From Austropuccinia psidii (taxonomy: Eukaryota; Basidiomycota; Pucciniomycetes; Pucciniales; Sphaerophragmiaceae): a DNA stretch of 64,000 bases. The translations under genes were made by a program, and so were the position numbers. The notes beneath the pieces are model-generated. The model had not been told where the DNA came from, did not search any database, and worked only from the letters and a program-made list of their open reading frames with translations. The stretch is from the NCBI GenBank assembly GCA_023105745.1, contig JALGQZ010000013.1, positions 21,948,105 to 22,012,104 on the forward strand. The letters run 5' to 3'. Below, one piece after another: positions 18,793 through 21,769 of this stretch; the stretch's first letter is position 1, and every line of letters begins with the position of its first letter.

Positions 18793-21708
18793 TTATGTCC
18801 TATTTTTCTTATTACCCCCCATTTCTAGGAGTTCATTGATATGTTTCTCAATTTCTTTCCTAGTTTCCATGCTGGCTGGGTATGGTGGTCTCCTAAGCAT
18901 AGGTGGATATGGTCTTTCTGCATCTAGATATAAGTCTATATCATGTCCTTTGATTTTTCCTAGTGGTTCATCTCCTATTGCAAAAGCTTCTCTATGTTTT
19001 CTCAATACTTTCAGTAAGTTGAGTTTCATTTTACTGGTGAGTTGAGTGCCATATTGAGCTTCTTTGAATTCTTCCACTAGTTCTTTCAAGGTGTTATCAT
19101 TTGTTACATGATTTATGTCAAAGGAAAATTTTTTGTCTTTGTTTGTACCTATGGTAAGATATCTGTTTTTACTATTGCAAATATCCATGCCATACATTCT
19201 TTGGTACTCTGTACCTAGTAAGAATCCTTGTACATGTGCATTTTCCAGAACTACAAATTCAGGTTCCAGTCTGATGTTTCCTTTTTGGTGTGGGATAATT
19301 ATCTCTTTGATTATTGTCCCCAGTGAGTGCATTTTGCCTGATGCACTTTCAAAGTTTCTAGCTTTTGTTGGGATTATCTCTTCTTCCCATTTGGGGAAGT
19401 GTTGTTCCAAGTATTCTTTTGCCACTATGGAGCAACTTGCTCCTGTGTCAATGATCATTGGGTGTTTACAGTTCTCAATGTAAACTGTCAATTTTGTAGG
19501 TGTTTCATGAATGAATCCCATCCCTCTATTTGGGGTTACCAGGAATGTTTGTGCATTCTGTGTGTGCTTACAGAGCTCTTTGTCTGTTGTTATTTGTGGT
19601 ATTCCTGAATCCAATTCAATGTCTTGTATGTCAAGTGAACTTTCTTCATTGCATTCCACTATGTATTCTTCTATGGTATCAGGTTCACTTTGTGATTCTG
19701 CTCTCATACCATTTCCCATGCTGTCAGAATCAGATTTTTCACCTGTTTGTTCTTCTTCTGATTCTTCATCAATTGCATATATTTTCTTTTTTGGTTTTGT
19801 GCAATTGTTGGCATAGTGGTCTGGTGATCCACAGTTGTGGCACACATATTTCTTTTTTGGGGTTTCTTTCCCTTTTTCTTTGTTTGTCTCTTTAACTTCA
19901 GACCTCTTGTCTTTGAAGTTTGGTTTATAGGATGTGTACCTTCCTATGGAGGTTTTCTTTCTCACATCTTGTATGACATTTGCTATGTAATCAATGCTGC
20001 TGATGTTGTTGCATCTGCATTTGACTGCATGTTCTAGATCTCCTGGCAATTTTGTTAGGAGTTTATGGTTTCTCATTTCTATTGTCATATTGGGATCAAT
20101 AGCTTTTAGCCTCTTTGTTTGTTTGAGGCACCATTCACAAGGGTCTTTTTCTGTGGAGTATCTATCACTTTCAAAGGACATGGTCTTTTGCCAGATCCAA
20201 CTACCATTGCTATACTTTTGTATAATCTGGTTCCTCCACCATGGCCAGCTTTTCCTGCCATGTATTTCTTTCATCTCAGTATACCATATGTTTGCATGGC
20301 CTCTGAATGCTGTGTTAAGTCTTGTTGTGATCCAGTAGTCTGGTATCTTTGGGACATCAACAAAGAGTCCATCAATATAGTCAATGATCTCCATATGGTC
20401 ATATTCCCCAATTCCTGAGAACTTTGGCCAGTTTGTTACTTCTGGTAACTGTTTTAGTGCCTGTTTCTCTGAATAGTTGAGATTTTCCCCATCTTGGTAC
20501 ACTGACTCTGATCTTAACTTTGGAATCTGATATTCAGGTTCCTGGTCATAGTCTTTATCCTCTTCTTTCAATTTTGTAGAGGTAGTAGGCTGACCTTGTG
20601 TTGGAGGGTATTGATTGTCTTCCCTGTCATAGAGGTAATCAATTTCTTTTTCAAGGTTATCCTGCTGCTGCTGGATATTCCTCAGATCCCTCCTCACAGT
20701 TTGTTGTTCTTCTAGAATTGAATTCAACTGTCTGTTAGTTTTTTCAAATTCTGTCCAAATTTTGGCCAGATTTGTATTTAAGTCTTTAATGACTGTTGCT
20801 TGGAAAGCATTTTCTTCTTTCAATGTTTCCATTTCTGTCCTCATTTTTCCTGAGGTTTCATATGTCCAATCCATGAATTGGGCCAATTTGGTCCATGTGA
20901 ATTTGTTTTCAAACTCATGAGTGTGGATTGTAGTTTCAGTCATTAATTCTGGGTCTATTGAGTCAGAACTATCAAAACTATTTGTAGGTACAACTATTTC
21001 TTGCTTTTGTGTACTTCTTGGACTAAGTCCATCAGCTTTTTCATCAATGGGTCTGCTTCTTTCTTCCTCTGGTTGAAAGAAGTTTTGTTTTTCCCTTGGG
21101 CTCCTTTTCTCCTGTTGGAAACTACCTGGAAGGGTTGGGGAGCCTTGGATGAAGTTTCCTTTGGCTTGTAGGGCCTGGAACTGCTGGATTGTTGTGGGGA
21201 AGATGGGACTTCTCCTTCCATTTCTGGGGGTACCTGAATCTGACTGGGCTCTTCCTTGTGCCAAGATCTCTCTATGGCTTGTATGGCTGCCTGGTTCTCT
21301 TTGATTCTGGTTGCTCTTTCTTCTAAGAGTTTGAAATTCTTGTTGGGATTCCAACCTTGCATTTCTGTCATAAGTTCCATCCAAGCCATTTGCTTGAGAC
21401 AGATCTTCTGGGTTGTTATCCCCACTTCTGCCCATGATGCTGCCATAGTGAACATTTTGTTGTCCATGCTCCATGTGAAGAGGTCTCTCAGGAGTTTGTG
21501 TATTTGGAGGACCTGTTCTGCATCTGTCCAATCTCCTGGTTGGACTTCTGGGTTGAACTTGATTTGGAACAAGACCTTGGGCAGGAGTTCCCTGATGGTA
21601 AGTCCTTTGCTGGTCATTTGCTCCAGTTCTTCTTCCTCTGTGTCTTCTTGGCCAGTGTTCTGGTTGATTTCTTGGGAATCCAAGATCTCTAAGAAGTGGA
21701 GGTGTCAT
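18793..21708 (-). CDS. RT-2 Gag-protease-RT fingers (frameshifted at the end)
   Basis: 971 codons from the ATG at 21708, the first sense-strand ATG after the LTR. Residues 1 to about 240 are low in hydrophobics and overlap ORF X. A coiled-coil region follows (about 260-350), then the capsid (LPEVTNWPKFSGIGEYDHM, near 425), a CCHC knuckle CHNCGSPDHYANNC near 625, a protease MIIDTGASCSIV near 750 and RT fingers (YPPMLRRPPYPAS). The frame ends just after LLEMG: a run of six G (18815-18820) holds one base more than is needed to continue into the Pol frame. The break lies inside RT between conserved residues, so it looks like an indel or sequencing error and not programmed frameshifting. Confidence 0.92.
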   Translation of the reverse strand: MTPPLLRDLGFPRNQPEHWPRRHRGRRTGANDQQRTYHQGTPAQGLVPNQVQPRSPTRRLDRCRTGPPNTQTPERPLHMEHGQQNVHYGSIMGRSGDNNPEDLSQANGLDGTYDRNARLESQQEFQTLRRKSNQNQREPGSHTSHREILAQGRAQSDSGTPRNGRRSPIFPTTIQQFQALQAKGNFIQGSPTLPGSFQQEKRSPREKQNFFQPEEERSRPIDEKADGLSPRSTQKQEIVVPTNSFDSSDSIDPELMTETTIHTHEFENKFTWTKLAQFMDWTYETSGKMRTEMETLKEENAFQATVIKDLNTNLAKIWTEFEKTNRQLNSILEEQQTVRRDLRNIQQQQDNLEKEIDYLYDREDNQYPPTQGQPTTSTKLKEEDKDYDQEPEYQIPKLRSESVYQDGENLNYSEKQALKQLPEVTNWPKFSGIGEYDHMEIIDYIDGLFVDVPKIPDYWITTRLNTAFRGHANIWYTEMKEIHGRKSWPWWRNQIIQKYSNGSWIWQKTMSFESDRYSTEKDPCEWCLKQTKRLKAIDPNMTIEMRNHKLLTKLPGDLEHAVKCRCNNISSIDYIANVIQDVRKKTSIGRYTSYKPNFKDKRSEVKETNKEKGKETPKKKYVCHNCGSPDHYANNCTKPKKKIYAIDEESEEEQTGEKSDSDSMGNGMRAESQSEPDTIEEYIVECNEESSLDIQDIELDSGIPQITTDKELCKHTQNAQTFLVTPNRGMGFIHETPTKLTVYIENCKHPMIIDTGASCSIVAKEYLEQHFPKWEEEIIPTKARNFESASGKMHSLGTIIKEIIIPHQKGNIRLEPEFVVLENAHVQGFLLGTEYQRMYGMDICNSKNRYLTIGTNKDKKFSFDINHVTNDNTLKELVEEFKEAQYGTQLTSKMKLNLLKVLRKHREAFAIGDEPLGKIKGHDIDLYLDAERPYPPMLRRPPYPASMETRKEIEKHINELLEMGGNKKNRT
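20994..21688 (-). CDS. RT-2 ORF X, second exon, overlapping gag
   Basis: An uninterrupted frame overlapping gag. With the exon at 21770-22081 it forms a 335-codon protein when the 81-nt intron is removed. It has the features of a folded protein: an acidic start, a Trp/Leu-rich helical region (LLRDLFTWSMDNKMFTMAAS), GWNPNKNFKLLEERATRIKE, a Ser/Pro linker, and a basic tail ending PLMKKLMDLVQEVHKSKK. RT-4 shares the landmarks GWNP, a Lys/Glu helix, a Ser/Pro/Gln linker and a terminal amphipathic helix. Function is unknown; a Gag-related or accessory role is only a guess. Confidence 0.75.
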
Positions 21709-21769
21709 GTTAACAATGTTAAAAAATGACAGACAATAAAAAATGTTGTATTCTTCAAGGTTTATTTAC
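21689..21769 (-). other. RT-2 81-nt intron containing the gag ATG
   Basis: Minus-strand donor GTAAAT at 21769 and acceptor CTTAG ending at 21689. Splicing joins GGACCTGCTAAAG to AGATCTTGG and stays in frame (GPAK then EILDSQEINQ). Unspliced, the exon frame stops three codons into the intron at TAA. The gag-pol ATG at 21708-21706 is inside the intron. Confidence 0.75.

What the first reader, a model, noticed from the sequence alone, without database searches (positions are those of the whole stretch)
21689..21769. The Gag-Pol start codon lies inside an intron, in three elements
In RT-2 (intron 21689-21769, ATG 21708), RT-4 (42150-42235, ATG 42225) and RT-1 (6512-6575, ATG 6525), a 64-86 nt GT-AG intron encloses the gag ATG. 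Splicing removes the Gag-Pol start and opens another frame; retention keeps Gag-Pol. Splicing would thus decide which protein is made from one transcript, a switch I do not know to be described for fungal Ty3/gypsy elements.
Basis: partly seen in the sequence, partly recalled or inferred. Interest (0 to 1): 0.95.

Follow-up and report, generated by a model that had tools for sequence, protein, structure and literature searches.

The report
Retrotransposon accessory gene hidden by splicing
Three fungal LTR retrotransposons carry, overlapping the start of their capsid gene in another reading frame, a conserved second gene that is likely read only when a short predicted intron, which contains the capsid gene's start codon, is spliced out, so splicing would choose which protein the element makes.

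Summary
In RT-1, RT-2 and RT-4 a 64-86 nt GT-AG segment encloses the gag ATG. Removing it joins an upstream exon, in phase, to the +1 frame over the first ~235 codons of gag. That frame encodes a protein: all 166 listed homologues (828 hits in the wider search, best 120 listed) are Austropuccinia psidii gene models, and 35 of 233 models examined read across the same junction. Between elements, substitutions fall on wobble positions of the accessory frame rather than of gag. The gag ATG looks real too: the ~1-1.5 kb leaders are almost free of ATG (3 observed, 51 expected), so unspliced RNA seems selected to start there. The accessory exon upstream of the intron has no ATG in RT-2 and RT-4 and begins AG|TG in all three, so its start codon is likely made by an upstream splice (A|TG). 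Splicing would then build one start codon and delete the other. No RNA was available: splicing, regulation and function are inferred. The accessory frame is intact only in RT-2, and pol is broken in these copies. It works like a retroviral spliced accessory gene.

The parts
21689..21769 (-). RT-2 predicted intron 2 (GTAAAT..TTAG, 81 nt) containing the gag ATG at 21708
   Evidence: junction shared by 35 of 233 A. psidii models
21770..22081 (-). RT-2 accessory exon 2, begins AG|TG, 104 codons open, no ATG in any frame
   Evidence: homologous residues in A. psidii models
20994..21688 (-). RT-2 accessory exon 3 (+1 frame of gag) to its stop; P0001 is its part from the first Met
18793..21708 (-). 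RT-2 gag-protease ORF (971 aa) starting inside the intron
22082..22861 (-). RT-2 candidate intron 1: donor ACTAACA|GTAAGT, acceptor AATAG|TG; splicing would give A|TG GAA AAA
   Evidence: prediction only
21709..23250 (-). RT-2 leader up to the gag ATG: 1 ATG in 1542 nt (22.3 expected)
   Evidence: start site estimated from a TATA-like box
42150..42235 (+). RT-4 predicted intron 2 (GTGAGC..CCAG, 86 nt) containing the gag ATG at 42225
42000..42149 (+). RT-4 accessory exon 2, begins AG|TG, 50 codons open, no ATG
42236..42936 (+). RT-4 accessory frame over gag, with 4 stops in its body; three of them lie in 42368-42433, a GCAAGT..CAG stretch of 66 nt that may be a further intron (untested)
   Evidence: end approximate
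42225..45770 (+). RT-4 gag-protease-RT ORF (1181 aa) starting inside the intron
40760..42224 (+). RT-4 leader: 0 ATG in 1465 nt (14.8 expected)
   Evidence: start site estimated
6512..6575 (-). RT-1 predicted intron 2 (GTAAGT..CCAG, 64 nt) containing the gag ATG at 6525
6576..6772 (-). RT-1 accessory exon 2, begins AG|TG, eroded (frame broken), holds 2 ATG
5653..6525 (-). RT-1 gag ORF remnant (290 aa) with the eroded accessory frame (+1) over it
24459..25113 (+). RT-3 eroded accessory/gag overlap, found by similarity to RT-4 (accessory z 25.5, gag z 11.6)

Best explanation
These Ty3/gypsy-type elements of a rust-like fungus hold an accessory gene whose last exon overlaps the start of gag in the +1 frame, and splicing is predicted to express it by removing the intron that contains the gag start codon. 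Shown by sequence: the accessory frame is conserved over the overlap while the gag frame stays open, the leader is nearly free of ATG up to the gag ATG, and the exon before the intron begins AG|TG in all three elements and has no ATG in RT-2 and RT-4. Inferred: unspliced RNA is scanned from the cap to the gag ATG and makes Gag (and is the RNA that is reverse transcribed, since the introns persist in the copies); spliced RNA makes an accessory protein of about 334 aa (RT-2), whose ATG is probably assembled from a leader exon ending in A and the TG of exon 2. If only intron 2 is retained, the accessory frame would stop inside it before the gag ATG. What the protein does is not known; its basic N-terminal part and predicted helical C-terminal part would suit a nucleic-acid-binding, regulatory protein, which is my working guess.
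For: Same junction in 3 of 3 elements, in phase, and in 35 of 233 A. psidii models. Accessory frame: 60 hits for P0001, 828 for its alignment; RT-1/RT-4 z 34 against 15 for gag and 12 for the third frame; RT-3/RT-4 z 25.5 against 11.6; differences by codon position .46/.42/.67 in the accessory frame.59/.45/.50 in the gag frame. Gag frame open over 720 nt in 3 of 3 elements; recoding the accessory protein of RT-2 never left the gag frame open (0 of 5000). ATG 3 observed, 51.1 expected in the three leaders, reverse complement CAT not depleted (68 observed); 0 of 442 overlapping AT-rich windows elsewhere in the window has fewer than 12. Met 2 of 2419 residues in exon 2 and 124 of 7230 in exon 3 of the 35 models. 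First residue of exon 2 is M, V or L (NTG-compatible) in 12 of 12 models that show it. 91 of 166 models end at the same C-terminus.
Against: No RNA evidence. The models are gene predictions of unknown support and may follow the frame rather than transcripts. The accessory frame is broken in RT-1 and RT-4. RT-2 and RT-4 show no similarity over the overlap in any frame (no pair above z 3.5), RT-2 and RT-1 only z 4.7 in the accessory frame, and the RT-2 profile does not find the others. RT-4 and RT-1 have no strong upstream donor. Recoding gag leaves the accessory frame nearly open (at most 1 stop) in 37 of 5000 cases, so openness alone is only moderate evidence. Part of the models that start at the gag ATG change frame (18 of 29 came from the accessory search). 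The RT-2 U3 control was also low in ATG (7 against 18).
Confidence: 0.76

Rival explanations
1. Intron 2 is an ordinary, constitutively removed intron; Gag starts at a downstream ATG of the spliced RNA, and the gag-frame reading over the overlap is not translated.
For: Selection over the overlap is mainly on the accessory frame; the gag frame there is low in complexity and less conserved (29-39% in 10 models compared against 45-50% in 9 for the accessory frame).
Against: The ATG-poor stretch ends at the intron ATG (first ATG upstream 1409 nt away in RT-2, 1554 in RT-4); gag frame open over 720 nt in 3 of 3; 28 of the 32 models that begin MSP keep LR at codons 6-7, as RT-2 does.
Confidence: 0.12
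2. The accessory frame is the N-terminal part of a second Gag form, joined to gag by a frameshift or a further intron.
For: A few models fuse the accessory frame to gag (P0088, P0129).
Against: 91 of 166 models end at the same accessory C-terminus; of the 87 with the stricter end motif 3 run more than 12 aa past it. The fusions seen differ in place, as expected of predictions over broken copies.
Confidence: 0.06
3. The accessory frame starts at a non-AUG codon or by leaky scanning at its first Met in exon 3 of unspliced RNA; the introns are not used.
For: P0001 has a Met 24 codons into exon 3, and some models start in exon 3.
Against: Exon 2 is conserved in phase across the junction but lies before an in-frame stop in the intron in 3 of 3 elements, so it would be pointless without splicing.
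Confidence: 0.06

Closest known systems
BARE1 (barley, Ty1/copia) spliced subgenomic gag RNA; EVADE shGAG (Arabidopsis)
   Same: LTR retrotransposon in which splicing of part of the RNA decides what is translated (PMC3735527 passages; PMC8892269 passages)
   Different: There the spliced RNA makes Gag; here it would remove Gag's start and make another protein. Other superfamily and kingdom.
Rice tungro bacilliform virus P4
   Same: Splicing joins a leader reading frame to a distant ORF and so gives it a start codon (PMC5902531 passages)
   Different: The start codon is whole in the leader uORF; here it would be split by the junction, and the same programme would delete the gag start.
Complex retroviruses (tat/rev-type spliced accessory genes; recalled, not tested)
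   Same: Unspliced RNA for Gag, spliced RNA for accessory proteins in overlapping frames
   Different: No sequence relation found; no env identified; overlap is with the start of gag.
MDG1-group sORF1/sORF2 (Drosophila Ty3/gypsy)
   Same: Accessory ORFs before gag in Ty3/gypsy elements (PMC11952523 passages)
   Different: Those lie upstream of gag on unspliced transcripts and start with their own ATG.
Fungal chromoviruses drawn with an 'add. ORF' (PMC2864245)
   Same: Fungal Ty3/gypsy elements with an additional ORF of unknown function (figure legend)
   Different: Figure not held, so its place is unknown to me; the passages seen speak of no splicing for it.

Membership tests
Ty3/gypsy LTR retrotransposon (Metaviridae) | LTRs and target-site duplication | tested here: met
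   RT-2 LTRs 99.07%, TSD CAAGG; RT-4 LTRs 98.4%; RT-1 91% over 580 nt
Ty3/gypsy LTR retrotransposon (Metaviridae) | Domain order with integrase after RT/RNase H | tested here: met
   RT-2: RVT_1, RNase H, H2C2, rve in that order; RT-4: RVT_1 in the first ORF, H2C2 and rve in a later one
Chromovirus | Chromodomain at the end of integrase | tested here: inconclusive
   RT-2 Chromo 21.2 bits, cut-off 25.1; not found in RT-4's last ORF
Spliced retroviral-type accessory gene | Reading frame made continuous only by splicing of the genomic RNA | tested here: met
   By sequence only, RT-2; in RT-4 and RT-1 the junction is in phase but the frame has stops further on
Spliced retroviral-type accessory gene | Spliced and unspliced RNA both present | not testable with these tools
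   No RNA data held
Spliced retroviral-type accessory gene | Protein under purifying selection | tested here: met
   Wobble excess in the accessory frame between RT-1/RT-4 and RT-3/RT-4
Rev-like export regulator | Binds unspliced RNA and promotes its export | not testable with these tools
   Only a basic exon 2 (pI 10.1); no usable Pfam hit and no PDB sequence relative

The most novel reading that the evidence does not exclude
One splicing programme exchanges start codons: it assembles the accessory AUG from A|UG at the leader junction and removes the Gag AUG with the next intron; and the accessory protein, made only from spliced RNA, is an early regulator that lets unspliced Gag/genomic RNA accumulate. 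That would be a retrovirus-style early/late switch in a fungal retrotransposon.
Probability: 0.3. Interest if true: 0.9.

Novelty: new variant of a known kind. Interest (0 to 1): 0.74.

Why it matters
More than 90% of the A. psidii genome is TE, mostly Gypsy (abstract passage of PMC8063080), and at least 166 of its 'hypothetical proteins' would be explained as one retrotransposon accessory gene. It would show that a fungal Ty3/gypsy element separates two products of one transcript by splicing and an exchange of start codons, a kind of control known from retroviruses and plant elements, and the claim can be tested on existing RNA reads.

Tried and rejected
The search of the window's own genome (genome search) did not complete, so there is no DNA of other copies, no dN/dS over many copies and no check of the donor or of A|TG elsewhere. 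One scan of viral contigs with A2 gave 593 pattern matches and no relative. Pfam gave only weak sub-threshold hits for 3 of 6 accessory models, PDB sequences none. Two AlphaFold2 models (mean pLDDT 53.7 and 63.6, pTM 0.23 and 0.28) were too uncertain, so no fold search was run. Considered and rejected: that the extra frame is chance; that ATG scarcity follows from base composition (dinucleotide shuffles, CAT control, 442 windows that overlap one another). The eroded RT-3 leader has 13 ATG in 823 nt, as expected once selection is gone; its expectation was not computed. Branch-point-like motifs were found in each intron but are not informative. RT-4 exon 2 shows no clear relative in RT-1, RT-2 or RT-3 (best z 2.9). 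The best donor was scored with a hand-made matrix from recalled consensus.

Full report
What is there. The window holds several LTR elements. RT-2 (- strand, about 14319-24458, LTRs 99.07% identical, 5-bp duplication CAAGG) sits inside an older element, RT-3 (+, LTRs 11631-13351 and 33027-34786, 75.7%). RT-4 (+, 39456-50168, LTRs 98.4%) and RT-1 (-, cut by the window start, LTRs 91% over 580 nt) are separate. The second large ORF of RT-2 carries the end of RT, RNase H, integrase and SH3_Tf2-1, and a chromodomain match below its cut-off. Similarity to one gag-pol model goes on in another frame at different places in RT-2 and RT-4, and RT-1 changes frame too, so these copies are taken as broken.

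The introns. In all three the acceptor AG is the first two bases of an AGA codon of Gag. Removing the segment joins the open frame before it to the +1 frame of gag in 3 of 3, although the lengths are 0, 2 and 1 mod 3. In RT-1 only about the last 55 codons before the intron are open. In RT-2 the spliced reading is 104 codons of exon 2 (with the predicted A) and 230 of exon 3. With the intron retained, the exon-2 frame meets a stop inside the intron before the gag ATG in 3 of 3.

The other frame is a gene. P0001 (RT-2 exon 3 from its first Met, 207 aa) found 60 proteins with E from 2e-58 to 9e-10; its alignment A1 (24 sequences) found 828, of which the best 120 are listed. All 166 distinct proteins listed in the two calls bear the name of Austropuccinia psidii MF-1; the other hits were not seen. 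Best identity was 75%, so the window need not be A. psidii, and its species is not identified. A gag search (only the 7991 candidates sharing most words were scored) gave 67 proteins, 66 of them named A. psidii. Of these 233 models, 35 match a junction pattern (..KFVQGTVK|ETLASKG..) without interruption, 32 from the accessory set and 3 from the gag set. Twenty-nine match a pattern for the gag start, 27 of them beginning exactly there; 18 of the 29 come from the accessory search and so change frame later. The models are predictions; I did not learn how they were made (PMC10455828 passages name the draft AVOT00000000 and do not mention RNA-seq).

Which frame is constrained. RT-2 against A. psidii: 45-50% in the accessory frame (9 models compared) and 29-39% in the gag frame (10 compared). 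RT-1 against RT-4: accessory 236 (z 34), gag 155 (z 15), third frame 96 (z 12). RT-3 against RT-4: accessory z 25.5, gag z 11.6. RT-2 against RT-4 shows nothing above z 3.5 in any frame, and RT-2 against RT-1 only z 4.7 in the accessory frame; a profile of 164 accessory sequences finds RT-2 in the window and neither RT-1 nor RT-4. So the homology of the RT-2 gene with that of the RT-1/RT-3/RT-4 group rests mainly on position and layout. Differences per codon position between RT-1 and RT-4 are 0.46, 0.42, 0.67 in the accessory frame and 0.59, 0.45, 0.50 in the gag frame; downstream gag shows 0.30, 0.24, 0.49 in its own frame. RT-3/RT-4 give 0.47, 0.45, 0.64 and 0.60, 0.41, 0.46. The excess at accessory third positions, which are gag first positions, says that selection acts mainly on the accessory frame.

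The gag frame is used too. It is open over 720 nt from the ATG in 3 of 3 elements, where the accessory frame has 4 stops in its body in RT-4 and 3 in RT-1. Recoding the accessory protein of RT-2 with the element's codon use left the gag frame open in 0 of 5000 trials; recoding gag left at most one stop in the accessory frame in 37 of 5000. Three of the RT-4 stops lie in a 66-nt stretch bounded by GCAAGT and CAG (42368-42433) that may be another intron (untested).

The leader. From an estimated start site (TATA-like boxes, my reading) to the gag ATG, RT-2 has 1 ATG in 1542 nt (22.3 expected from dinucleotide shuffles), RT-4 0 in 1465 (14.8), RT-1 2 in 925 (13.9; both in its eroded exon 2): 3 against 51.1, the lowest ratio of all trinucleotides with expectation above 8. 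Over a longer stretch of 1035 nt RT-1 has 3. CAT, its reverse complement, is near expectation (28/34, 22/24, 18/16.5). U3 controls gave 7/18 (RT-2), 21/19 (RT-4) and 21/25 (RT-1). Of 442 other AT-rich windows of 1465 nt (overlapping) the lowest count is 12. The lone RT-2 ATG reads ATT in its other LTR. In the 35 models Met is 2 of 2419 residues before the junction and 124 of 7230 after it (the model's own first Met left out). Because the depletion runs through the stretch that would be intron 1 of RT-2, the RNA that is scanned should be unspliced (inference).

How the accessory protein starts. Exon 2 has no ATG in RT-2 and RT-4, and RT-4 has none in the whole estimated leader, so the start must be made by splicing or be non-AUG. 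The exon begins AG|TG in 3 of 3 elements; a donor after an A would give A|TG. RT-2 has one good donor, ACTAACA|GTAAGT at 22861, the best of 47 GT; RT-4 and RT-1 have only weak ones. In the 12 models that show the first residue of exon 2 it is M 4, V 6 or L 2, each possible as NTG; M, V and L are 14% of residues in the set. In two of the four M cases that Met is the model's first residue.

Function. Exon 2 is basic (pI 10.1), exon 3 near neutral; exon 3 is predicted helical at low confidence. No usable Pfam hit and no PDB sequence relative. A regulatory or RNA-binding role is a guess.

Literature. The listings brought no fungal Ty3/gypsy element with a spliced gene over the gag start; the library lacks most subscription papers. 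In two rust TE papers a word search gave nothing: PMC12210899 has no 'spliced', 'intron' or 'gag'; PMC8063080 has no 'gag' and 'splic' once. Precedents, seen as passages: BARE1 (PMC3735527), EVADE (PMC8892269), RTBV P4 (PMC5902531), the unspliced MDG1 sORFs (PMC11952523). Fungal chromoviruses with an 'add. ORF' exist (PMC2864245), position unseen.

Verdict. The feature is real and conserved. That one transcript encodes two mutually exclusive products is well supported by sequence; that splicing occurs, how much, and what the protein does remain to be shown.

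Noticed in passing
21709-23250 (-), 40760-42224 (+), 6526-7450 (-): CpGs left in the leaders sit mostly in the context ACGT (13 of 24), often as GACGTG; unexplained.
   Followed up: no
22946, 41488, 6986, 13489: TTTGGGGGCC(T/C).. follows the LTR in RT-2, RT-4 and RT-1 and recurs at 13489 behind the RT-3 LTR; looks like a shared primer binding site, tRNA not identified.
   Followed up: partly
14312-24458 within 11631-34786: RT-2 is nested in the older RT-3, near the start of RT-3's own gag/accessory overlap, with a 5-bp duplication.
   Followed up: partly
51306-52298: ORF with a Tet-like 2OG-Fe(II) oxygenase domain, PF20515, E 8e-46.
   Followed up: no
58362-58940: ORF with an SNF2-related helicase domain, PF00176, E 6e-32.
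   Followed up: no
9200-10080: Array of 21-nt-spaced repeats that also matches its own reverse complement.
   Followed up: no
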